From the NCBI RefSeq assembly GCF_014654205.1, contig NZ_BNAW01000013.1:1-64000 (forward strand): 64,000 nucleotides of DNA, in the 5' to 3' direction. Position 1 is the first letter of the stretch. Every line of letters begins with the position of its first letter. The notes beneath the pieces are model-generated. The model saw only the letters and a program-made list of their open reading frames with translations, was not told the DNA's origin and made no database searches. Of the stretch, positions 23,166 through 32,989 are shown one piece after another. Made by a program: the position numbers and the translations under genes. The DNA comes from Amycolatopsis bullii. Its GTDB lineage: Bacteria > Actinomycetota > Actinomycetes > Mycobacteriales > Pseudonocardiaceae.

Positions 23166-24473
23166 ATGACGTCCACTCGGGAACACCGCACGCACCCGGA
23201 GGCCGCTTCGGTGGCCGAAACCCTGCGTGTCGCGCTCGAAGTGGCCCTGCCCACGCTGGCCGGCGGGGTGATCAAGCGCCGTCCCGCGATGATGGCGGTG
23301 GCCGGGAAGCTGCAGTTCGACCGCCGGGCCGTGCGGCTGCTGCGCCGGCTGCGCGACCGCCACCACGGGCACCCGCTGAAGCTGCGCGTGCCCGGCCGGT
23401 CCGTCGGGCTGGCTCTGTCCGGCGCGGACGTGAAGCGGCTGCTGGCCGGCGCGCCGACGCCGTTCAGTCCGTCCACAGTGGAGAAACGCGCCGCGCTGGG
23501 CCACTTCCAGCCGCACGGCGTCCTGATCTCGGACGCGGCCGAGCGGACGGCTCGCCGCCGGTTCACCGAAGCCGTGCTCCAGCCCGGCCGTCCGCTGCAC
23601 GAGCTGGCGGCACCGTTCGCCCGGGCCATCGCCGAGGAAGCGGCCGTGCTGCCGCAGTCGGCGACGCTCGACTGGGACACCTTCAACGTGACGTGGTGGT
23701 GCCTGGTCCGGCGCGTGGTGCTCGGCTCGGCCGCCCGGGACGACACGACGCTCACCGACCAGCTCGAACGCCTGCGCCTCGATGCGAACTGGGCGTACGC
23801 GCACCCCAAGCGCAAGCAGCTGCGCGAGGAGTTCCGGCGCCGCCTGGCCGAGCACCTGAAGCGCGCCGAGCCGGGCAGCCTCGCCGCCGTGATCGCCGCC
23901 GAAGACGCTGCCGACGCCCCCGATCAGGTGGCCCACTGGCTGTTCGCGTTCGACGCGGCCGGCATGGCGACGTACCGGACGCTGGCGCTGCTGGCGAGCC
24001 ACCCGGCGGAGCTGGAGCGCGCCCGCTCGGAGCTGGACGGCCTCGACCTCACCGAGCCCCACCAGCTGAGCTACCTGCGCGCGTGCGTGCTGGACGCGGT
24101 CCGGCTGTGGCCGACCACCCCGATGATCCTGCGGGAGACGACCGAAGAGACGTCCTGGGGCCCGGCGGGAACGACGGTGCTGATCTTCACGCCGTTCTTC
24201 CACCGGGACCCGGACCTGCCCTACGCGGACCGGTTCGAGCCGGACCTCTGGCTCGACGGCCGGGCGGCGGAGAACCCCGCCCTGGTCCCGTTCAGCGCGG
24301 GCCCGGCGATCTGCCCGGGCCGGGACCTGGTCCGGTTCTGCGCGAGCACGATGCTGGCGAACCTGCTGCGCGAGCACCGGTACGAGCAGGCGTCGGGACC
24401 GGTGCTGTCCCCGGAACGCCCGCTGCCGGCGACCCTGGACAACTTCCACCTGAAGCTCAAGCCGGTCGGCTGA
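23166..24473 (+). CDS. cytochrome P450 with DxxR
   Basis: 435 aa. Haem-ligand motif FSAGPAICPGRD with Cys383; I-helix FAFDAAGMATYRTLALL; the K-helix motif reads D-A-V-R at 310-313, where almost all P450s have ExxR. Substrate unknown; likely a monooxygenase of secondary metabolism or xenobiotics. TAACCG ends six bases before ATG 23166, compatible with a leaderless mRNA. No ferredoxin gene is adjacent. It overlaps the convergent DJ-1 gene by 17 bases. Confidence 0.9.
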   Translation: MTSTREHRTHPEAASVAETLRVALEVALPTLAGGVIKRRPAMMAVAGKLQFDRRAVRLLRRLRDRHHGHPLKLRVPGRSVGLALSGADVKRLLAGAPTPFSPSTVEKRAALGHFQPHGVLISDAAERTARRRFTEAVLQPGRPLHELAAPFARAIAEEAAVLPQSATLDWDTFNVTWWCLVRRVVLGSAARDDTTLTDQLERLRLDANWAYAHPKRKQLREEFRRRLAEHLKRAEPGSLAAVIAAEDAADAPDQVAHWLFAFDAAGMATYRTLALLASHPAELERARSELDGLDLTEPHQLSYLRACVLDAVRLWPTTPMILRETTEETSWGPAGTTVLIFTPFFHRDPDLPYADRFEPDLWLDGRAAENPALVPFSAGPAICPGRDLVRFCASTMLANLLREHRYEQASGPVLSPERPLPATLDNFHLKLKPVG

Positions 24474-25767
24474 GCCGGTTCCGCCGCACCCGGACCACCA
24501 CGACGACGCCCGCGACGCCCAGCAGCACCAGCGCGATCGGCAGCGCCGTCGGCAGCCAGGGCCAGGCGTCACCTTCGAACACGATCCCGTCGGTGGGCAG
24601 TTCCAGCACCTTCGCCGTCCACTGCGCGGTCGCCACGTCGGTGTGGCGGGACAGCCCGCTCACCGCGGTGTCGTAGGGGAAGCCCGGCCGGTCGTGGACG
24701 TACTCGGGGGCCGGCGCGCCGGGTGGCGGCGTGATCCCGCGCGTCGCGCCGGGGACGAGCAGCCGGTCGAGCCGCGCCGAGGCGAGGGCCGCGCGGGGCA
24801 GGAACGTCAGCCCGTGCCGGGACCGGATCGGGCCGCCGTCGATGCCGACCGCGAGGGTGCGCGAGGACAGCGACTGGCCTTCGGTGTCGAACACCGACGC
24901 GAGTTCGACCTCGCCGACGCCGTTCGCGAGCAGCACGCCGATCTCGTCGGGGTGCCAGCGGAACCCGGCGTTGACGATCGCGGCCGCGTCCGGCAGCCCG
25001 GCCGGCGCGTGCACGGGCACCGCGGTGCCGTAGCGGTGCCAGCCGATGGCCGCCGCGGCGTCGGCCGCCACCGCGGGCCCGGCCAGGCGCTCGACCCAGT
25101 GGAGCGTGCCGTCGATGCCGGAGAGGATCCCGGCGGTGGTCACGACGTTCCCGTCGTCGACGAACCGCTCTCCGCGCACCCACCGCACCGCCGGGTACTC
25201 GGCGGCCCAGGCGTCGACCTTCAGCCAGTGCGCGGTGGCCGGCCGTCCGTCGAGCAACCCGGCGGAGGCGAGCACCGCGCCGCCGTTGCAGACGCTCAGC
25301 AGCTTCGAGCCGTGGGCGGCCTGCTCCCGCAGCCACCCGGTCACCGGCTGGGTGGTGGGCTCGCCGACGTCCGGGAACGCGGGCACGACGACGAGGTCCG
25401 GCGCGGCCCCGCCGAGCCGGGCGGCCAGGCCGGCGAAATCGAGGTCGGGCACCACGTCGAGGCCGCCGGTCAGCGGCTTCGGCTCGCGGTGCGACGCCAC
25501 CGTGTAGACGTTGAACCGGCCGGTCGCGGCCAGGATCTCGTAGGGGGCCAGCGCGTCGGAGACGACGGCTCCGCGGTCGCCGATGACGACCACCGCGGTC
25601 GGCTTGGCCGGGTCGTGGGCGACCGGGGCCGCGGCGGGGACGGGCCGTGCCGGGCCGGGGGCGTAGAGGGCGTCGAACGCTCCGAGCGCGGAGACGGTCG
25701 CGCCCACGGCGGGGACCACCAGCACGGCGATCACCGCGGCGAGGAGGAAGGCGATGCGCTTGAGCAT
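24457..25767 (-). CDS. membrane-anchored DJ-1/PfpI family protein
   Basis: 436 aa. Residues 4-28 and about 405-425 are membrane helices, so the central DJ-1/PfpI domain lies outside the cytoplasm. The nucleophile elbow SVCNGGAVLASAGLL and ALAPYEILAATGRFNVYTVA match the GATase1-like part of GlxA-type proteins but no AraC domain follows. Possibly a glyoxalase, amidase or ligand sensor. It starts two bases after the stop of the small membrane gene upstream, so the two are coupled. Confidence 0.82.
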   Translation of the reverse strand: MLKRIAFLLAAVIAVLVVPAVGATVSALGAFDALYAPGPARPVPAAAPVAHDPAKPTAVVVIGDRGAVVSDALAPYEILAATGRFNVYTVASHREPKPLTGGLDVVPDLDFAGLAARLGGAAPDLVVVPAFPDVGEPTTQPVTGWLREQAAHGSKLLSVCNGGAVLASAGLLDGRPATAHWLKVDAWAAEYPAVRWVRGERFVDDGNVVTTAGILSGIDGTLHWVERLAGPAVAADAAAAIGWHRYGTAVPVHAPAGLPDAAAIVNAGFRWHPDEIGVLLANGVGEVELASVFDTEGQSLSSRTLAVGIDGGPIRSRHGLTFLPRAALASARLDRLLVPGATRGITPPPGAPAPEYVHDRPGFPYDTAVSGLSRHTDVATAQWTAKVLELPTDGIVFEGDAWPWLPTALPIALVLLGVAGVVVVVRVRRNRLSRPA

Positions 25768-25769
25768 GA

Positions 25770-26159
25770 TCAGTGCCAGTACTCGGCGCGGCGCCACACC
25801 ATGGCGGCGAGCATCAGCGGGAACATGACGACGTGCCCGGCGACCATCAGCGCCGTCCCGGAGAGCGCGCCCAGCCAGTGGGGCACGAGCAGTGCTGCGA
25901 AGGGCAGGTACATCACGGCGGCCATCTCGGCGATCCGCGGCCACGAGTGCCGTCGCAGCGCCATCGCGAGCACCATCGCGACGGTCATGTTCGTGGCCAT
26001 CACGAGTGCGTCGGCGTCCGGGCGCTCGAGCCAGGCGGCGGGCCACAGCGGGCCGAGCGCCACCATGCCGATGAGCATGGCGGCGACCATTTCGACGTAG
26101 TGGCCGGCGAAGCGGGCGAGCTTGCGGGTGGTGGTCCGCGGGGGTGTGGTGGTGGTCAT
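25770..26159 (-). CDS. small four-helix membrane protein
   Basis: 129 aa from ATG 26159, with GGAGGGA upstream. After a basic Thr-rich N-terminus there are four hydrophobic stretches (MVAAMLIGMVALGPLWPAAW; ALVMATNMTVAMVLAMAL; AAVMYLPFAALLVPHWL; ALMVAGHVVMFPLMLAAMVW). No family is recognised. Stop TGA is two bases before the ATG of the DJ-1 protein, so they probably form a membrane pair. Confidence 0.78.
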   Translation of the reverse strand: MTTTTPPRTTTRKLARFAGHYVEMVAAMLIGMVALGPLWPAAWLERPDADALVMATNMTVAMVLAMALRRHSWPRIAEMAAVMYLPFAALLVPHWLGALSGTALMVAGHVVMFPLMLAAMVWRRAEYWH

Positions 26160-26244
26160 GGTTCCCTCCAGGTTGTTCTGGAAGGAGAATCGCGGGTTCC
26201 GGGCGTGCGGCCAGGTGCCGGAAGTCATGACCGGGGGTCATGGT

Positions 26245-26898
26245 CTACAGCAGGCCGAGGTCCCTCGCCCGCAGAGCGGCCTGGGTGCGGTCGCGCGCCC
26301 CGAGCTTGCCCAGCACGTTCGTGACGTGGTTCTTGACCGTGCCTTCGGCGAGGAACAGCGCCGCGGCGATCTCGCGGTTGCTGCGGCCGTCGGCGAGCAG
26401 GCGCAGCACGTCGAGTTCACGCTCGGACAGCGGCACCACGAGCGGCTGCGGCCGGGGTTCCGGCGCGTCCGGCAGCTGCGCGAACCGGGCGAGCACCTTC
26501 GCCGCCACCGAGGGCTGCAGCACCGACTCCCCACGGGCCGCGGCCAGCACCGCCTCGACCAGCCGCGCCGAGGAGACGTCCTTCAGCAGGTAGCCGACGG
26601 CGCCCGCGCGCACGGCGGCGAAGACGTCTTCGTCGTCGTCGAAGGTGGTCAGCGCGATGACCCGGATGTCCGTGTGCTCGGCCCGCAGCCGCCGGGTGGC
26701 GGCCACGCCGTCGAGGACCGGCATGCGCAGGTCCATCAGGACGACGTCCGGAGCCAGCGCAGCGGCTTGGCGCAAGGCTTCGTCGCCGTTGCCGGCTTCG
26801 CCGACGACGTCGATGCCGTCGTGCGTGGCGAGCAGGGTGGCGAGTGCTTCGCGGAACAGGGCCTGGTCGTCGACGAGCAGGACGCGGACCGGCGTCAT
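26245..26898 (-). CDS. NarL/LuxR-type response regulator
   Basis: 217 aa. Receiver domain with Asp10/Asp11 (LLVDDQ), phosphoryl Asp56 (VVLMDLRMP), switch Thr (ALTTF) and Lys (YLLKDV); LuxR-type helix-turn-helix at residues 155-215 (LSERELDVLRLLADGRSNREIAAALFL). Its ATG overlaps the kinase stop (ATGA). The pair is divergent from the glycosyltransferase cassette and upstream of the small membrane/DJ-1 genes; either could be a target. Confidence 0.93.
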   Translation of the reverse strand: MTPVRVLLVDDQALFREALATLLATHDGIDVVGEAGNGDEALRQAAALAPDVVLMDLRMPVLDGVAATRRLRAEHTDIRVIALTTFDDDEDVFAAVRAGAVGYLLKDVSSARLVEAVLAAARGESVLQPSVAAKVLARFAQLPDAPEPRPQPLVVPLSERELDVLRLLADGRSNREIAAALFLAEGTVKNHVTNVLGKLGARDRTQAALRARDLGLL

Positions 26899-27989
26899 CC
26901 GGGGATCTCCATGGTCAGGGCGCTGCCGCGGCCGGGGGTCGAGGTGAAGGCGAGCTCGCCGCCGAGGTGTTCGGCCCGCTCGCGGAGGCCGACCAGGCCG
27001 AAGCCGGTCGGCGCCGCGCCGTCGCTGCCCCGGCCGTCGTCGCGGACCTCGACCCGGACCGCGCCGGCGGCGTAGCCGAGGACTACGTCGGCCGTCGAGG
27101 CGCCGGCGTGCTTGCGGACGTTCGTCAGGCCTTCCTGCGCGGCCCGGTAGAGCGCTTCGCGCTGCTCGTCGGCCAGCGGGCGTTCGGTGCCGGTCACGGT
27201 GAGCCGGGCCGTGACGCCGGTGGCCGACGTCTCTTCGGCGAGGGCTTTCAGCGCCTCCGGCAGCGGCGGGACGGGCCGCGGTTCCCGCAGCGTCCGCACC
27301 GAGCGGCGCACCTCGGCCAGCGCGGTTTCGGCCTGCTCCTGCGCTTTCGCCAGTACGTCGTCGGCCTTGGCGGGATCGGTCGGCAGCACCGCCCGCGCGG
27401 CCTTCACCTGCATCTGGACGACGGTGAGCGAATGCCCGAGGCCGTCGTGGATGTCGCGCGCGACGCGGTTGCGCTCCTGCGCCGTCGCCAGCCGCTCCGC
27501 CTGGGCGGCGTGGTCACGGAGTTTCGCGTAGGCCTCGGCGAGCTCGCTTCGCGAGCGTTGCTCCCGCAGCGACAGTTCGGTGATGATCGCGGCGAACAGC
27601 ACCGACATGAGCGTGCCGATGCCCTCCCGCAGTCCTTCGCCCAGCGACATCCCGAGGTGCACCAGCGGGATCACGGCGATGACGAGGGCGATCGCGGGCC
27701 GCGGCAGGCGCAGCAGCACGCACTGGCTGACCAGCACGACCAGGTACAGCGTCGTCCCGACCCCGGCGTCGATGGTGAAGAGCACGAAGGCCAGGGGGAG
27801 CTGGACGGCGACGTAGGCCGCACCCCAGGCGAGCTGCTCGTGGCCGCGCACCCAGCCGAAGACCGCGGTGGCGAGCACGGCGAAGACCGCGCCGAGCGCG
27901 AGAGCGAGCCAGGGTTCCCCGGAGCCGAGGACCCCGAGCACGATCGAGAGGAAGGCGCCGCAGGTCAGCACCCCGAGGGCCCGGTTCAT
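26895..27989 (-). CDS. NarL-type sensor histidine kinase
   Basis: 364 aa from ATG 27989. Five to six N-terminal membrane helices (residues 5-140) without a large extracellular loop, a coiled linker, the HisKA_3 phosphoacceptor in ARDIHDGLGHSLTVV and a HATPase domain with GLTNVRKHAGA (N box) and DDGRGSDG (G1). Probably senses a membrane or envelope signal and phosphorylates the coupled response regulator. CACAGT ends six bases before the ATG, possibly a leaderless start. Confidence 0.92.
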   Translation of the reverse strand: MNRALGVLTCGAFLSIVLGVLGSGEPWLALALGAVFAVLATAVFGWVRGHEQLAWGAAYVAVQLPLAFVLFTIDAGVGTTLYLVVLVSQCVLLRLPRPAIALVIAVIPLVHLGMSLGEGLREGIGTLMSVLFAAIITELSLREQRSRSELAEAYAKLRDHAAQAERLATAQERNRVARDIHDGLGHSLTVVQMQVKAARAVLPTDPAKADDVLAKAQEQAETALAEVRRSVRTLREPRPVPPLPEALKALAEETSATGVTARLTVTGTERPLADEQREALYRAAQEGLTNVRKHAGASTADVVLGYAAGAVRVEVRDDGRGSDGAAPTGFGLVGLRERAEHLGGELAFTSTPGRGSALTMEIPG

Positions 27990-28109
27990 GCGGTCACTGT
28001 GGAGGGTGCGGGCGCTCGGGGTCAACCACGAAAGCGTTCACACGGCCGTTCGGCAGCCCCGCGCTTACGCTGGACTCGACGGCCAAGCCGATTCGGGGGT
28101 TTGACATCG

Positions 28110-30677
28110 ATGTCAGTGCTCTGGGGCGTGTCCTTCGACGCCACTCCGCTGTCCGGGGTCGTGGTCGAGTTCCTCAAGACGGCGCGCCGCTTCGCCGCCC
28201 GCGGGCACCGCGTCCACCTGGACCTCGGGTACGACATCAAGGCCGACAAGGGCGCGTTCTTCCGGCCCTACCGCGACGAAGCCGAGCTGCTGCCGGAGTG
28301 GGTCACGCTCGACCGCGTCGAGGGGGTGGCGGAGATCCGCGGCTACGACCGCGAATTCGTCGAAGCGGTGCTCGCCCAGGTCGTCCAGGCCGGTGACGAC
28401 GCGCTGCGGCCCGAACTCGACCGCATCGCGAGCGAGCTGGCGGACCGGATCGTGGCCACCTGGGAACGCCTCGGCGTGACGATGGTGATGGTGGAAAACG
28501 GGACCCTGCCGGAAAACCTCGCCTACACCGAGGCGCTGTACGCCGCGATCGAGCGCTACGGCGCCCGCCACCGGCTCGGCCGGTTCGTCTTCTGGCGCGA
28601 CCACGACCTGATGTGGCAGAGCGAACCCGGGATCGCCAAGTACGGCACGTTCCCGTACCCCGGCGTCCCCGCACCGCGGAACTCCCCGTACATCCACTAC
28701 TTCGCCCTGCACGAAGAGGCGCTGGCGCGGACCCTCGAGTGGGTGCCGGGCCTGGCCACCATCGACGTCCTGCCGAACTCCTTCGCCATCGCGCCCGCCC
28801 GGATCGACGAGCGGAACGCGGGTTTCCGTCGTGACCACGGCATTCCCGACGGCGTCCCGCTGCTGGCCCGGATCACGCGGGTCATCCCGCAGAAGCGGAT
28901 CGACCGCGAGCTCCACCTGCTGGCCCTGCTGCCGGACGCGTGGCTGTTCGTCGCCGGTGACGTCGCCGAGACGCCCACCGAGCACGCCCGGCTCGCCGCC
29001 CTCGCGGACCGCCTCGGCGTGCGCGAGCGCGTCGTGTTCGGCGGCTGGCTGACCCCGTACGACACGAGCGTCCCCGGCCGGTACTCCGTGCGCGATCTCC
29101 TCGCCCACGCGACCGTGGTGTCGTTCCTGACCTCCTACGACTACGAGAGCTACGGCAACCCGGTCAGCGAGGCGATCGCGTCCGGGACGCCGTACATCAC
29201 CAGCGGGTACGAGCTGTACGACGTCGTCTACGGCGGCTTCCGGGCCCCGGTGCTGGACATCCGGGTCCGCGACCTGCCGGACGCGGCGTTCGCCCGCGAA
29301 GTCGCCGAGCTGATCACCGACGAAGGGAAACGGGCGGAAGTGGTGCGGGTGAACTCGGAACTCGGGCAGGCGCGGTTCGGCGCGCGGGTGGTCGACGACC
29401 TGGTCGACCGGCTGTACCCGCCGCCGATGGGCGCGGCGACGCGGCTGAGCGTGGTGCTGCCGGTCTACAACGAAGCCGCGAACCTCCCGGAGGTGCTGCG
29501 GACGCTGCACGACCAGCGCGCGCTGGACAAGGACCGGTACGAAGTCGTGCTCGTCGACAACAACTCCACCGACGACACCGTGGCCATCGCGCACGCCTTC
29601 GCGGCCGAGCACCCGGACCTGGCCCTGCACGTCATCCACGAGCCGGAGCAGGGCGTTTCGTGTGCGCGGCGGGCCGGGATGGACTTCGCCGCCGCGCGGA
29701 GCCGCAACCGGCCCGACAGCGACCCGGGGGAGCGGTTCTACCTCGTTTCCGCCGACGCCGACTGCCGGGTCGACGCGCACTGGCTGAGCGAACTGTTCGC
29801 GGCCATGGAGTCGAGCAAGGCCGCCATCGGCGTCTGCGACTACTACTACAACCCCGCGCACTTCACGGGACGGCCCCGGCTGTGGGATGCGATCCAGCGG
29901 ACGCTGCGCTGCCGCGCCGTCACCTTCGCGCTCTTCGGCGGCTTCCCCGACGGCAAGGGCTTCGCCGTCGAGCGCGACGCCTACGAGCGCGCCGGCGGCA
30001 TCGAGATCTTCTACCAGCTGCAGGACGGCAAGTTCGTCAACCACCTCTCCGACGACTGGGACTTCGGGATCAAGGTGGCCAACGGCGGCGACCCGATCAC
30101 CTACGCGCCGCGCTCGCGCGTCGAGATCAACCCGCGGCGGGTCGACCACGCCATCGACGAGGTCATCGCCGGCCGCGCGTACGGCTCGGACGGCATCATC
30201 GTGATGCGGGACATCCGGCCGTCGGCGCCTTCGGAGCCGGTGGATCTCACCGAAGCCGAGGCGAAGCAGGCGTGGGAGTTCTCGATCAAGGACTTCACGC
30301 CGAAGAACACCGTCCTGCCGGTGCTGCTGACCCCCGCGCTGCTGGAGGACGACGCCGTGATCGCGTTCTTCGGGCCCGATCTCGCCGCGCGGCTGGCCCG
30401 GCGGATCACCGAGATCCGGCACGAGATGCGCGTCGTCGACTTCACGCCGATCCACGCCTACAAGACACCGTCGTACCGGCTGTACTTCGAGTTCGCCGAC
30501 GAGCTGTTCGCCTGCCTGCGGCGGCACGTCGGCGAGGACATCGGCCACCCGCCGCCACTGCCGCCGTGCCTGGCGGAGGTCCCGGCCGCGCGGTTCGCGG
30601 AGTTCGTCCGCTACTACTGCGAGGACCGCGAGTCGGGCGAGGCCCACAACTACTTCGGCAACGGAGGGGTGTTCTGA
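28110..30677 (+). CDS. fused GT4-GT2 glycosyltransferase
   Basis: 855 aa soluble protein with two catalytic modules. Residues 1 to about 435 are GT-B, family 4-like, with LLARITRVIPQKRIDRELHLL and NPVSEAIASGTPYITSGYELYDV (the ExxxxG region). From Met440, LSVVLPVYNEAANLPEVL begins a family 2 GT-A domain with VDNNSTDDT, the metal DxD in SADADCRVD (about 549) and DDWDFG (about 648). A 130-residue C-terminal part is unassigned. No membrane helix. Stop and the next start overlap (TGATG), tying it to the radical SAM gene. TACGCT at 28066-28071 is a likely -10. The two transferases may act in succession on one acceptor. Confidence 0.88.
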   Translation: MSVLWGVSFDATPLSGVVVEFLKTARRFAARGHRVHLDLGYDIKADKGAFFRPYRDEAELLPEWVTLDRVEGVAEIRGYDREFVEAVLAQVVQAGDDALRPELDRIASELADRIVATWERLGVTMVMVENGTLPENLAYTEALYAAIERYGARHRLGRFVFWRDHDLMWQSEPGIAKYGTFPYPGVPAPRNSPYIHYFALHEEALARTLEWVPGLATIDVLPNSFAIAPARIDERNAGFRRDHGIPDGVPLLARITRVIPQKRIDRELHLLALLPDAWLFVAGDVAETPTEHARLAALADRLGVRERVVFGGWLTPYDTSVPGRYSVRDLLAHATVVSFLTSYDYESYGNPVSEAIASGTPYITSGYELYDVVYGGFRAPVLDIRVRDLPDAAFAREVAELITDEGKRAEVVRVNSELGQARFGARVVDDLVDRLYPPPMGAATRLSVVLPVYNEAANLPEVLRTLHDQRALDKDRYEVVLVDNNSTDDTVAIAHAFAAEHPDLALHVIHEPEQGVSCARRAGMDFAAARSRNRPDSDPGERFYLVSADADCRVDAHWLSELFAAMESSKAAIGVCDYYYNPAHFTGRPRLWDAIQRTLRCRAVTFALFGGFPDGKGFAVERDAYERAGGIEIFYQLQDGKFVNHLSDDWDFGIKVANGGDPITYAPRSRVEINPRRVDHAIDEVIAGRAYGSDGIIVMRDIRPSAPSEPVDLTEAEAKQAWEFSIKDFTPKNTVLPVLLTPALLEDDAVIAFFGPDLAARLARRITEIRHEMRVVDFTPIHAYKTPSYRLYFEFADELFACLRRHVGEDIGHPPPLPPCLAEVPAARFAEFVRYYCEDRESGEAHNYFGNGGVF

Positions 30678-32107
30678 TGACCTTGGGCTACGAAGAAGCG
30701 GTCGGCTCGCTGCACGCGATCGACCCCGCGTGGCCGCGGCCCGCGGTGCTCGACGTCCTCGAAGCGCCCGAGAACCGGCACCTCCTGGACTTCGTGCAGG
30801 AGGATCCGTTCGGGGCGCACGTGTTCCCGGGCAACGTCCCCGGATCGCCGTCGGAGTTCCTGCGCGATCTGGACGCGCAGCTCGCGTCGTCCGGTCCGAT
30901 CCACCTGTGGTCCTACATCCCCACCTGCGCCTACCGCTGCCGGTTCTGCCAGTACCCGGTGGTGCTGGTGAAGGGAAAGATGGAGAAGGCGGCCGACTGG
31001 GTCGACCTCAACATCGCCGAGGCGAAGCTCTGGCTGGACGCCGTACCCCACCTGGCCGGCGCCGAGGTGGGGGAGTTCAACGTCTTCGGCGGCACGCCGT
31101 CGCTGCTGCCGGAACCCGAAATCCGGCGGCTGCTGGAGTTCTACCGCGCGAACTTCGGGTTCACCGCCGACACGACCATCCGGTTCGAGGGCGACCCCAG
31201 CACGTTCACCCCGGCCAAGCTCGAGCTGCTGCGGGAGCTGGGCTGCACCAAGCTGTCCAGCGGCGTCCAGTCGTTCGACGACCACGTGCTCGGGCTCTGC
31301 GGGCGCGAGCACACCGCGCAGATGTGCGTCGACTTCGTGCGCAACGCCCGTTCGGCGGGCTTCGAGTGGGTCAGCATCGACCTGATGTACGGCCTGCTCG
31401 ACCAGACGCTCGACAGCGTCCGCCGCGACCTCGACGTCGTGCTGGAGAACGAGGTCACGGCGGTCGTGTGCACGAAGCTGCACCTGGCGTCCTACAGCGA
31501 CACGCGCACCGGCGTCACCGGCGAGAAGCCGGCCGCGTGGCAGCTGCCGTCCTACCGCGACAAGCTCGTGCGCGACGGCCACCGCTGGCCGACGCTCGGC
31601 GAGCAGTACCAGATGCGGGAGCTGCTGACCGAGGGCCTGCGGACGGCCGGGTACACCGAGCACCCGACGATGTACTTCGCGCGCGACGGCCTCGGGCCCG
31701 AGAAGTGGAAGTCGATCATGGTCGACCAGGACAAGCAGGAAGCCGAGGTGGCGATCGGGCTGGGCGGCAGCTCGAGCTGCCGCGCGTCCGAGGCGATCAC
31801 CGACGTGAACTCCCGGCGCTACACCGAAACCGTGAACGCCGGCCGGATCCCGCTGGGGTCGGCGACGCGGTTCACGCCCGAGGCACAGGAGGCCCGGGCC
31901 GTCAAGATGGCGCTGACGACGTTGCAGCCGCTGCGGGATTCCCTCCATCGCCAACGGTTTCCGGGACGTTCGCTGTTCGCGGAACCGTGGCTGGGCAAGT
32001 TCCGTTCGCTGGCTTCGCGGGGCCTGGTCCGGTTGGGGCCGGACGTCGTCGACCTGACCCCGGCCGGGGAGGTGCTCGTCGAGGCGATCATCACCACCGA
32101 ACTTTGA
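30677..32107 (+). CDS. HemN-like radical SAM enzyme
   Basis: 476 aa. The [4Fe-4S] motif is CAYRCRFC (Cys84, Cys88, Cys91); then FNVFGGTPSLL, IRFEGDPSTFTPAKLELLRELG and LSSGVQSFDD, all HemN-family signatures, and a HemN_C-like winged end (SRGLVRLGPDVVDLTPAGEVLV). It lacks the extra Cys of true HemN (CxxxCxxCxC), so it resembles HemW/class C radical SAM methyltransferases rather than coproporphyrinogen dehydrogenase. Coupled by TGATG to the GT4-GT2 fusion, suggesting it modifies the glycan, its acceptor or a shared product. Confidence 0.9.
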   Translation: MTLGYEEAVGSLHAIDPAWPRPAVLDVLEAPENRHLLDFVQEDPFGAHVFPGNVPGSPSEFLRDLDAQLASSGPIHLWSYIPTCAYRCRFCQYPVVLVKGKMEKAADWVDLNIAEAKLWLDAVPHLAGAEVGEFNVFGGTPSLLPEPEIRRLLEFYRANFGFTADTTIRFEGDPSTFTPAKLELLRELGCTKLSSGVQSFDDHVLGLCGREHTAQMCVDFVRNARSAGFEWVSIDLMYGLLDQTLDSVRRDLDVVLENEVTAVVCTKLHLASYSDTRTGVTGEKPAAWQLPSYRDKLVRDGHRWPTLGEQYQMRELLTEGLRTAGYTEHPTMYFARDGLGPEKWKSIMVDQDKQEAEVAIGLGGSSSCRASEAITDVNSRRYTETVNAGRIPLGSATRFTPEAQEARAVKMALTTLQPLRDSLHRQRFPGRSLFAEPWLGKFRSLASRGLVRLGPDVVDLTPAGEVLVEAIITTEL

Positions 32108-32200
32108 AGATCACTGCATCGGGTGACACGAGCCTCGCGGGGAGCGAGTGCGGCAGGCAGCATGGATTCCGGACCTGTTGCCGACGTGATCGGAGCCCGG

Positions 32201-32989
32201 ATGAACCGGACCGTGGCGGGCGCGGCCGCGCTGGCGGTGCTCGCGACCGTGGTGGTCGCGACGCCGGCCCGAGCCGACTACTCCCTGGCGGACACGAACT
32301 ACGCGGGCACCCAGATCGCCCGCCACGAAGGCGTCCACGGGACTCCGCGCGCCGACGCGGCCGAGCAGACGCTCGGCCACGACGTCAGCGGGCACCAGGG
32401 CCCGGTCGACTGGGCCGCCGCGGCCGGGGCCGGCGCGAAGTTCGCCTACGTCAAGGCGACCGAGGGCACCGGGTTCGTCAACCCGCAGTACGGGCAGCAG
32501 TACGACGGCGCGCACGCGGCGGGCATCATCCGCGGCGCCTACCACTTCGCCCGCCCGGACGTCTCCGGCGGCGCCGAGCAGGCGGAGTACTTCATCGCCA
32601 ACGGCGGCGGCTGGCGTCCCGACGGCACGACGCTGCCCGGGGCGCTGGACATCGAATACAACCCGTACGGCGACGTCTGCTACGGCAAGAACCCGGCCGA
32701 CCTGACGGCGTGGATCGCCGACTTCACCCGCACGTACCTGGCGAAGGTCAAGCGCAGCGCGCTGATCTACACGAGCACTGCGTGGTGGAAGCGCTGCACC
32801 GGCAACACCCCCCGGTTCGGCAACACCGATCCGCTGTGGCTGGCGCGGTACGGCCCGGACGTCGGCGAACTGCCGGCGGGGTGGGACAAGCAGAGCATCT
32901 GGCAGTTCGCGCGCAGCGGCGGCCTGCCGGGGGACCAGAACTACTACAACGGCCCCCTCAGCCGGGTGCAGGCGCTGGCGAAGGGTTAG
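32201..32989 (+). CDS. secreted GH25 lysozyme-type muramidase
   Basis: 262 aa from ATG 32201 with GGAG upstream. Signal peptide MNRTVAGAAALAVLATVVVA with cleavage near ARA-DYS. Catalytic GH25 motifs: GHDVSGHQGPVDW, FAYVKATEGTGF and the acid pair in GALDIEYNPYG. Cleaves beta-1,4 bonds between N-acetylmuramic acid and N-acetylglucosamine in peptidoglycan. No binding domain. A short hairpin (GCGCC/GGCGC) follows the stop. Confidence 0.93.
   Translation: MNRTVAGAAALAVLATVVVATPARADYSLADTNYAGTQIARHEGVHGTPRADAAEQTLGHDVSGHQGPVDWAAAAGAGAKFAYVKATEGTGFVNPQYGQQYDGAHAAGIIRGAYHFARPDVSGGAEQAEYFIANGGGWRPDGTTLPGALDIEYNPYGDVCYGKNPADLTAWIADFTRTYLAKVKRSALIYTSTAWWKRCTGNTPRFGNTDPLWLARYGPDVGELPAGWDKQSIWQFARSGGLPGDQNYYNGPLSRVQALAKG

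What the first reader, a model, noticed from the sequence alone, without database searches (positions are those of the whole stretch)
28110..32107. Two-gene cassette: fused GT4-GT2 glycosyltransferase with a HemN-like radical SAM enzyme
Seen: an 855-aa protein with a complete GT-B family 4 module and a complete GT-A family 2 module, its stop overlapping the start (TGATG) of a radical SAM protein with CxxxCxxC but not the extra Cys of HemN. Known: HemN-like class C radical SAM enzymes include methyltransferases of natural products. Inferred: two sequential glycosyl transfers plus a radical modification of one product, perhaps a cofactor, glycolipid or storage glycan. A divergent NarL-type two-component system could control it. 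I know of no described pathway with this pair.
Basis: partly seen in the sequence, partly recalled or inferred. Interest (0 to 1): 0.72.

Follow-up and report, generated by a model that had tools for sequence, protein, structure and literature searches.

The report
Sugar-transferase and radical-enzyme gene pair
Two overlapping genes, one for a double sugar-attaching enzyme and one for a radical enzyme of the HemN type, form a compact unit shared by soil actinobacteria and by plasmids of nodule-forming and plant-associated bacteria, and probably make an unknown modified sugar compound.

Summary
Window 28110-30677 encodes an 855-aa GT4-GT2 fusion and 30677-32107 a 476-aa HemN-fold radical SAM protein; stop and start overlap. 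The pair is a real conserved unit: both GT modules lie upstream of the radical SAM gene in 58 of 61 related loci, the GT has the radical SAM gene beside it in 30 of 30 genomes of the family that carry it, and the same 10 plasmid records hold both. The radical SAM proteins form a clade outside HemN and HemW, with W, Y and K fixed in 32 of 32 where HemN/HemW have Y, H and R. The two-component system is not part of the unit. New here: distant orthologues lie on plasmids of rhizobia (two within 10 kb of nodSU), and the Paraburkholderia phymatum pair falls about 17- and 32-fold in nifA-mutant bean nodules (table of PMC8305402). Two proteobacterial lineages carry the unit directly behind trehalose- or Thu-type sugar-uptake genes. 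Best reading: a three-active-site pathway builds a small oligosaccharide and modifies it by radical chemistry. Product, donor sugars and reaction are unknown; the searches made found no described pathway.

The parts
28110..29420 (+). GT4 (GT-B fold) module of the fused glycosyltransferase, aa 1-437
   Evidence: Pfam PF00534; AF2 model aa 1-438 aligns with HepE, BshA, PimA, TreT, SenB at Z 23-31
29145..29171 (+). E-x7-E type GT4 motif (E346..E354); E354 invariant in 17 of 17, E346 replaced by D in some relatives
   Evidence: motif meaning recalled
29421..30677 (+). GT2 (GT-A fold) module with a helical C-terminal extension, aa 438-855
   Evidence: Pfam PF00535; secondary structure
29754..29762 (+). 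DxD of the GT2 module (SADADC, D549-D551), invariant in 14 of 14
30051..30068 (+). DDWDFG, probable catalytic-base region of the GT2 module, invariant in 14 of 14
   Evidence: role recalled
30621..30674 (+). C-terminal tail EDRESGEAHNYFGNGGVF of the GT2 module: near-invariant but low model confidence (mean pLDDT 58 and 43 in the last two blocks); possible docking or lid segment
   Evidence: role inferred
30675..30679 (+). TGATG: stop/start overlap of one base (suggests translational coupling)
   Evidence: same overlap in 47 of 54 loci
30677..32107 (+). HemN-fold radical SAM protein, 476 aa
   Evidence: VIA-align to HemN 1olt Z 34.9 over 412 residues
30926..30949 (+). CxxxCxxC cluster motif (C84, C88, C91); no fourth Cys
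26245..26898 (-). NarL-type response regulator: neighbour, not part of the unit
26895..28025 (-). HisKA_3 histidine kinase: neighbour, not part of the unit
32123..32989 (+). GH25 lysozyme-like protein: neighbour, found only in Amycolatopsis loci (13 of 61)

Best explanation
The unit is a self-contained biosynthetic cassette with three active sites made from overlapping genes. The GT4 site puts one sugar on a small acceptor, the GT2 site adds a second sugar (or attaches the product to a second acceptor), and the HemN-fold radical SAM enzyme, probably holding two SAM molecules, carries out a radical reaction on the resulting small oligosaccharide (C-methylation, or H-abstraction leading to decarboxylation, dehydration or epimerisation). 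The product is most likely a soluble sugar compound of the osmolyte or rhizopine type, perhaps exported by an MFS transporter in some lineages, not a polymer or surface glycan. Shown: the modules, motifs, folds, gene overlap, co-inheritance and the separate rSAM clade. Inferred: order of steps, shared substrate, two-SAM chemistry, nature of the product.
For: Adjacency: both GT modules upstream of the rSAM in 58 of 61 loci, rSAM beside the GT in 30 of 30 family loci (20 of these 30 are the same sequence as one of the 61), same 10 plasmid records for both. One-base overlap in 47 of 54; correlated distances. Where GT4 and GT2 are separate genes (Duffyella, Cupriavidus, R. jaguaris, Pseudochrobactrum) the order GT4-GT2-rSAM is kept, so the three activities belong together. 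No polymerase or lipid-carrier gene turned up as conserved at a fixed place across genera within 10 kb, and no conserved small peptide ORF was found within 1.5 kb in 64 regions, which argues for a small product. The one repeated close neighbour that I followed up outside a single genus is a divergent MFS transporter in 8 of 61 loci (6 Streptomyces, 1 Amycolatopsis, 1 Nonomuraea), fitting a small exported molecule. Full HemN architecture (Z 34.9, 412 aligned; next entry Z 15.4); NocN Arg171 and Asp196, which contact the SAMs, correspond to R210 and D235, 32 of 32. Sugar context: treB-treC (treR divergent) ahead of the unit in Duffyella, TreR, TreB and TreC above NCBIfam cut-offs, and a solute-binding protein-permease-permease-ATPase-ThuA-Gfo/Idh operon ahead of it in Pseudochrobactrum, gene order as in Sinorhizobium medicae and Agrobacterium.
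Against: No substrate or product is known. Tyr56 of HemN (stacks on SAM II, paper) is Trp78 in 32 of 32, Arg153 of NocN is Lys192 in 32 of 32 and Tyr96 of NocN is Asn135 in 31 of 32, so the second SAM site is altered and two-SAM chemistry is not proven. Trehalose/Thu context occurs in 2 of 6 proteobacterial genera; in the stretches seen of the other four no such gene is listed (gene tables incomplete), and in actinobacteria I did not look for it gene by gene. [quoted passage not shown] Microseira has GT4 and rSAM without GT2, so GT2 is not always needed. The rSAM could act on something other than the sugar product.
Confidence: 0.5

Rival explanations
1. The unit modifies an envelope or exopolysaccharide building block: the GTs act on a lipid carrier or surface glycan and the rSAM edits one sugar.
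For: The GT2 module's most frequent curated match is the polysaccharide transferase HpsE (14 of 14 members, in the window's module only over residues 8-91); the GT4 fold matches lipid-sugar enzymes such as PimA and WaaG as well as HepE and BshA.
Against: No polymerase, flippase or priming gene turned up as conserved beside it across genera; the unit travels as two or three genes. Scores for envelope transferases are far below curated cut-offs (and for the first member).
Confidence: 0.2
2. The product is a trehalose-based or trehalose-related compatible solute: trehalose is the acceptor, or the product is taken up and recycled through the neighbouring uptake genes.
For: treB-treC directly upstream in Duffyella, Thu-type operon directly upstream in Pseudochrobactrum; GT4 module matches the mannosylglucosylglycerate synthase profile in 9 of 17 members, best 2.2e-12, over positions 78-425 of 431; TreT appears among structural neighbours at Z 23-24.
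Against: Only 2 lineages; the profile match is far below its cut-off (46 of 640 bits) and not reached by the window protein itself; TreT is one of many GT4 neighbours and not the best; P. phymatum's upstream LacI protein is not TreR by cut-off (52.6 of 357 bits); trehalose unchanged in nifA nodules.
Confidence: 0.25
3. The two proteins only share a transcript; the rSAM does a tetrapyrrole-related or housekeeping job.
For: HemN fold, 24% identity to E. coli HemN over the structural alignment.
Against: Own genome carries a separate HemW-like protein (L113); HemN, HemW, HutW and STM4012 profile scores are 87-106 bits against cut-offs of 205-400; no fourth Cys; close co-occurrence with the GTs in the sets searched.
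Confidence: 0.07

Closest known systems
HemN (oxygen-independent coproporphyrinogen III oxidase, PDB 1olt)
   Same: Whole-chain fold, CxxxCxxC, GGTP and GVQ motifs, residues for SAM I
   Different: Below the family score cut-off, no fourth Cys, SAM II Tyr56 replaced by Trp, Arg by Lys; different gene context
Class C radical SAM methylases (NosN/NocN, TbtI, C10P)
   Same: HemN-like core; equivalents of NocN Arg171 and Asp196
   Different: Tyr34, Tyr96 and Arg153 of NocN not kept; partner genes are glycosyltransferases
Mycofactocin MftC/MftF (recalled; PMC7491314 seen as the start of its abstract in a listing)
   Same: A radical SAM enzyme working with a GT2 glycosyltransferase in actinobacteria
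   Different: No precursor peptide found here, different rSAM subfamily, GT4-GT2 fusion instead of MftF
Mannosylglucosylglycerate synthase MggS (NF041101), BshA, MshA, TreT
   Same: GT4 module shares fold (BshA, MshA, TreT) or weak profile similarity (MggS, BshA, MshA)
   Different: MggS cut-off missed (46 of 640 bits); as far as I recall none is fused to a GT2 or paired with a radical SAM enzyme
Rhizopine genes mos/moc (recalled)
   Same: NifA-linked expression in nodules, symbiosis plasmid, uptake and MocA-type genes beside the unit in one lineage
   Different: Enzymes unrelated as recalled; no evidence that the product is catabolised

Membership tests
HemN (TIGR00538) | score over curated cut-off 324.95 | tested here: not met
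   100.2 bits
HemN (TIGR00538) | fourth Cys two residues after the third cluster Cys | tested here: not met
   Tyr in 28 and Phe in 4 of 32
HemN (TIGR00538) | HemN fold over the whole chain | tested here: met
   1olt Z 34.9, 412 aligned, rmsd 2.7
HemW (TIGR00539) | score over curated cut-off 205.4 | tested here: not met
   87.1 bits; separate branch in the tree
STM4012 (NF006067) | score over curated cut-off 380 | tested here: not met
   106.4 bits, best curated match
ChuW/HutW (TIGR04107) | score over curated cut-off 400 | tested here: not met
   97.1 bits
Class C radical SAM methylase | Tyr stacking on SAM II (HemN Tyr56, NocN Tyr34) | tested here: not met
   Trp78 in 32 of 32 (residue role from PMC12871812, passages); still aromatic
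Class C radical SAM methylase | Asp contacting both SAMs (NocN Asp196) and Arg171 | tested here: met
   D235 and R210, 32 of 32 (NocN numbering counted by me)
Class C radical SAM methylase | two SAM used per turnover, C-methylation activity | not testable with these tools
   needs biochemistry
Glycosyltransferase family 4 | Pfam PF00534 over cut-off and GT-B fold | tested here: met
   37.1 over 26.4 bits; Z up to 30.7
Glycosyltransferase family 2 | Pfam PF00535 over cut-off, DxD | tested here: met
   85.2 over 23.3 bits; D549/D551
Mannosylglucosylglycerate synthase (NF041101) | score over curated cut-off 640 | tested here: not met
   best 46.4 bits; 9 of 17 members match at E<=0.001, window protein not among them
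RiPP pathway | conserved precursor peptide gene nearby | tested here: inconclusive
   none found within 1.5 kb in 64 regions; a remote or very divergent one is not excluded

The most novel reading that the evidence does not exclude
The cassette makes a new class of radical-modified oligosaccharide that soil actinobacteria and nitrogen-fixing nodule bacteria share by gene transfer: in beta-rhizobia it is switched on with the NifA regulon inside legume nodules and acts as a symbiosis metabolite (osmolyte, rhizopine-like nutrient, or signal), with trehalose as building block.
Probability: 0.2. Interest if true: 0.85.

Novelty: new variant of a known kind. Interest (0 to 1): 0.62.

Why it matters
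A two-gene unit of this size is small enough to express whole, yet it joins two sugar transfers to a HemN-type radical enzyme whose substrate would be a sugar, a substrate class I recall for no characterised HemN relative. Its presence on plasmids of rhizobia, with lower transcript levels in nifA and rpoN mutant nodules, turns an orphan actinobacterial gene pair into a testable question about what bacteroids make.

Tried and rejected
Rejected: regulation by the adjacent two-component system (genome G239 carries the GT, but no match to the kinase at E<=1e-60); HemN/HemW identity; RiPP precursor (the first, unmasked run gave a 16-genus cluster; rerun with low-complexity masking it dissolved, and the largest remaining cluster was the GT's own N-terminus); phage records (no match) or viral contigs (none) as carriers. 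A correction made on rechecking: I had taken the 3-genus cluster ahead of the GT (L043 5840-7220) for shadow frames only; its minus-strand frame is an MFS transporter, present divergently upstream in 8 of 61 loci. It is unlike the MFS gene behind the Duffyella unit (no cross match at 1e-10).

Led nowhere: direct NifA/sigma-54 site upstream of the pair. A strict -24/-12 pattern within 700 bases gave none in P. phymatum, P. phenoliruptrix, R. jaguaris, Duffyella or Microseira, one in S. garamanticum, two in C. taiwanensis and one in Pseudochrobactrum; background 27 of 415 windows; a NifA-type upstream element only in R. jaguaris and Microseira. So the NifA effect may be indirect. Wider sampling gave almost nothing: 1 of 242 genomes of the Microseira class, 1 of 297 of the Pseudochrobactrum order, both at E<=1e-50, and 1 of 396 of the window's phylum at E<=1e-60; each hit was the query's own genome. 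TreT, SenB, MshA, BshA and others lie in one broad band of structural neighbours of the GT4 module and do not choose a substrate. NocN (9p2u) is not among the 50 rows shown; I drew nothing from that. Papers: searches listed no paper that describes a function of the pair; the two papers that name the P. phymatum genes do so in lists and tables (passages). Passages of PMC5789663 and PMC4101177 do not mention the pair. The library lacks most subscription journals. The HemN-like review PMC10114718 was not held.
Full report
WHAT IS THERE. The window is contig 13 of a 9.38-Mb genome; the nearest named relatives of its rSAM protein are Amycolatopsis. At 28110-30677 lies an 855-aa protein with a GT4 module (Pfam PF00534) and a GT2 module (PF00535), at 30677-32107 a 476-aa radical SAM protein (PF04055). 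The stop of the first and the start of the second share one base.

IS IT A UNIT. A scan of one genome per species (genome contigs) with the radical SAM protein gave 61 loci under 18 genus or group labels, among them Amycolatopsis, Lentzea, Kibdelosporangium, Streptomyces, Frankia, Kineosporia and Nonomuraea, one MAG labelled Solirubrobacteraceae, one Pseudochrobactrum and one cyanobacterium, Microseira. One label, Rhodococcus (L063), looks wrong: the same contig is placed in the window's family (G093, same coordinates as G252). Both GT modules lie upstream of the rSAM in 58 of 61; exceptions are L089 (rSAM fragment, no GT), L092 Microseira (GT4 only) and L093 Kibdelosporangium (GT2 only). Started from the GT, 30 of 249 genomes of the family carry it (5 of 17 listed of the genus), and 30 of 30 have the rSAM next to it (L034 lacks the GT4 half). 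The two sets overlap: 20 of the 30 contain an exact 400-base stretch of one of the 61, so about 71 distinct loci were seen. The one-base overlap is found in 47 of 54 loci measured. GT and rSAM distances correlate (r 0.90 in 21 actinobacteria, 0 of 2000 permutations as high).

WHAT IS NOT PART OF IT. Among open-frame families within 10 kb that lie outside the cassette, the widest reach 7 and 6 genera at scattered positions. The one at a fixed place in more than one genus that I followed up is a divergent MFS transporter just upstream of the GT in 8 of 61 loci: six Streptomyces, A. antarctica and Nonomuraea. The two-component system flanks the pair only in Amycolatopsis (11 of 61). In the genus, 11 of 11 loci with a kinase of 77% identity or more have the GT beside it, but 13 further loci keep the system at 53-65% without the GT within 1.5 kb; six of those genomes (G015, G054, G085, G107, G124, G231) had no GT match at all, and G239 has the GT without a kinase match. 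So the pair is the unit, with an optional transporter.

BEYOND ACTINOBACTERIA. tblastn of each protein against 72,556 plasmid records gave the same 10 records, at 46-49% identity for the rSAM and 45-49% for the GT: plasmids of Paraburkholderia phymatum, P. phenoliruptrix and P. sabiae, Cupriavidus taiwanensis, Rhizobium jaguaris and Sinorhizobium garamanticum, three Duffyella gerundensis plasmids, and Pseudochrobactrum sp. XF203. I looked at 7 of the 10 stretches. In P. phymatum and P. phenoliruptrix the unit starts about 9 kb behind nodU, in R. jaguaris it lies near genes annotated rhiA and rhiC. GT4 and GT2 are one gene in P. phymatum and S. garamanticum and two genes in Duffyella, C. taiwanensis and R. 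jaguaris and in Pseudochrobactrum L090, in the order GT4-GT2-rSAM. In Pseudochrobactrum XF203 (L110) GT2 and rSAM are not annotated as complete genes and match in several pieces, so that copy may be damaged. In P. phenoliruptrix the GT is annotated as two overlapping pieces that divide it elsewhere. The split genes show that three activities, not an accidental fusion, are kept together.

EXPRESSION ELSEWHERE, FROM PRINT. Table 1 of PMC8305402 (passages seen) lists the P. phymatum orthologues BPHY_RS38025/Bphy_7707 (glycosyltransferase) and BPHY_RS38020/Bphy_7706 (radical SAM protein) at log2 fold change -4.98 and -4.07 in bean nodules of a nifA mutant against wild type; the next gene BPHY_RS41080/Bphy_7704 is at -5.92. 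PMC5979394 (passages) gives -3.6 for Bphy_7707 in rpoN mutant nodules. A search for these locus tags found only these two papers, and the passages assign no function. I found no convincing sigma-54 site ahead of the genes, so control may be indirect: nodules that do not fix nitrogen differ in many ways.

WHAT THE RADICAL ENZYME IS. The AF2 model (26 sequences, mean pLDDT 90.5) matches HemN over nearly its whole length: Foldseek TM 0.74, VIA-align Z 34.9, 412 residues, 2.7 A, the next entry at Z 15.4. Yet the curated cut-offs are missed: HemN 100 of 325 bits, HemW 87 of 205, HutW 97 of 400, STM4012 106 of 380. In a tree, 32 family members form one clade (100/100) apart from E. coli HemN and HemW and the window genome's own HemW-like protein (the branches to HemN and HemW are very long, so how they join is unsure). 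The SAM-binding residues reported for NocN (PMC12871812, passages) map as follows: Arg171 to R210 and Asp196 to D235, 32 of 32; the SAM II-stacking Tyr to W78, 32 of 32; Arg153 to K192, 32 of 32; Tyr96 to N135, 31 of 32 (alignments; NocN numbers counted by me). The enzyme is HemN-like in build with a remodelled second-SAM site. Two-SAM chemistry is likely but not shown.

WHAT THE TRANSFERASES ARE. The fusion model (pLDDT 84.1) shows a GT-B half whose structural neighbours are HepE, BshA, PimA, sucrose-phosphate synthase, TarM, TreT and SenB at Z 23-31. By profile, 9 of 17 GT4 modules match mannosylglucosylglycerate synthase (best 46 bits of 640), 8 VpsD, 7 BshA and 3 MshA; the window's own module matches no family at E<=0.001. 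The GT2 half has DxD and DDWDFG intact in 14 of 14 and a C-terminal extension without a Pfam match, ending in a near-invariant tail to which the model gives low confidence; I read this as a docking or lid segment (inference).

SUGAR CONTEXT. In Duffyella the unit follows treB-treC, with treR divergent before them; the three proteins pass their NCBIfam cut-offs. No terminator-like site lies between treC and the first GT, and the top-listed one lies behind the last of three further genes (16 sites found against 12 expected, so this is weak). In Pseudochrobactrum (L090 and L110) the unit follows solute-binding protein, two permeases, ATPase, ThuA and a Gfo/Idh oxidoreductase, the order seen in Sinorhizobium medicae and Agrobacterium, which I recall as the Thu trehalose/maltose/sucrose system of S. 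meliloti. These are two of six proteobacterial genera. They suggest a link to trehalose or a similar soluble sugar. Against it: no such gene is listed near the unit in the stretches seen of the other four genera (incomplete gene tables), I did not look for it gene by gene in actinobacteria, and the nifA paper reports unchanged trehalose.

HOW IT MOST LIKELY WORKS. GT4 forms a first glycosidic bond on a small acceptor, GT2 a second, and the HemN-fold enzyme edits the product by a radical step. The absence of a conserved carrier, polymerase or peptide gene and the optional MFS transporter favour a small compound. Confidence 0.5 for this frame, 0.25 for trehalose as a part of it, 0.2 for an envelope glycan instead.

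NOVELTY. The folds and families are known; the combination, the rSAM subfamily and the product are not described in anything I could find (searches listed under Tried and rejected; most subscription journals are not held). I therefore rate it a new variant of a known kind, with interest raised by the symbiosis link.

Noticed in passing
L105 15965-16525 (P. phymatum plasmid pBPHY02): A hemerythrin-domain protein (Pfam) follows the pair in P. phymatum and P. phenoliruptrix; in P. phymatum it is strongly down in nifA nodules (Bphy_7704, -5.92, there called an AraC-family regulator).
   Followed up: partly
L043 5870-7090 (-), and L044, L045, L046, L049, L050, L051, L094: A divergent MFS transporter gene (62-82% identical to that of L043 in the aligned parts) lies just upstream of the GT in 8 of 61 loci; possible exporter of the product.
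   Followed up: partly
L106 15441-16244 and 17550-18350 (Duffyella): Two paralogous proteins of 267 and 266 aa (56% identical) without a Pfam or NCBIfam match flank an MFS transporter directly behind the unit.
   Followed up: partly
L093 (Kibdelosporangium; same sequence as L034): The GT4 half is missing while the GT2 half and the radical SAM gene remain: a decaying or reduced form.
   Followed up: no
L092 8456-11431 (Microseira wollei): A cyanobacterial form has GT4 and rSAM; no GT2 module matched in the genome at E<=1e-8. A UbiE-like methyltransferase lies next to it.
   Followed up: partly
L063 (record titled Rhodococcus rhodnii NRRL B-16535): A 12.4-Mb genome whose contig is placed in the window's own family (G093): the record's species label is probably wrong.
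   Followed up: partly
L105 25409-28180: A gene annotated queE and a methyltransferase gene lie near the pair on the rhizobial plasmid and are also strongly NifA-dependent (Bphy_7690 -4.11, Bphy_7688 -6.25).
   Followed up: no
window 24457-26241 (-): A 594-aa frame with a DJ-1/PfpI domain in its middle only; may be a real regulator.
   Followed up: no
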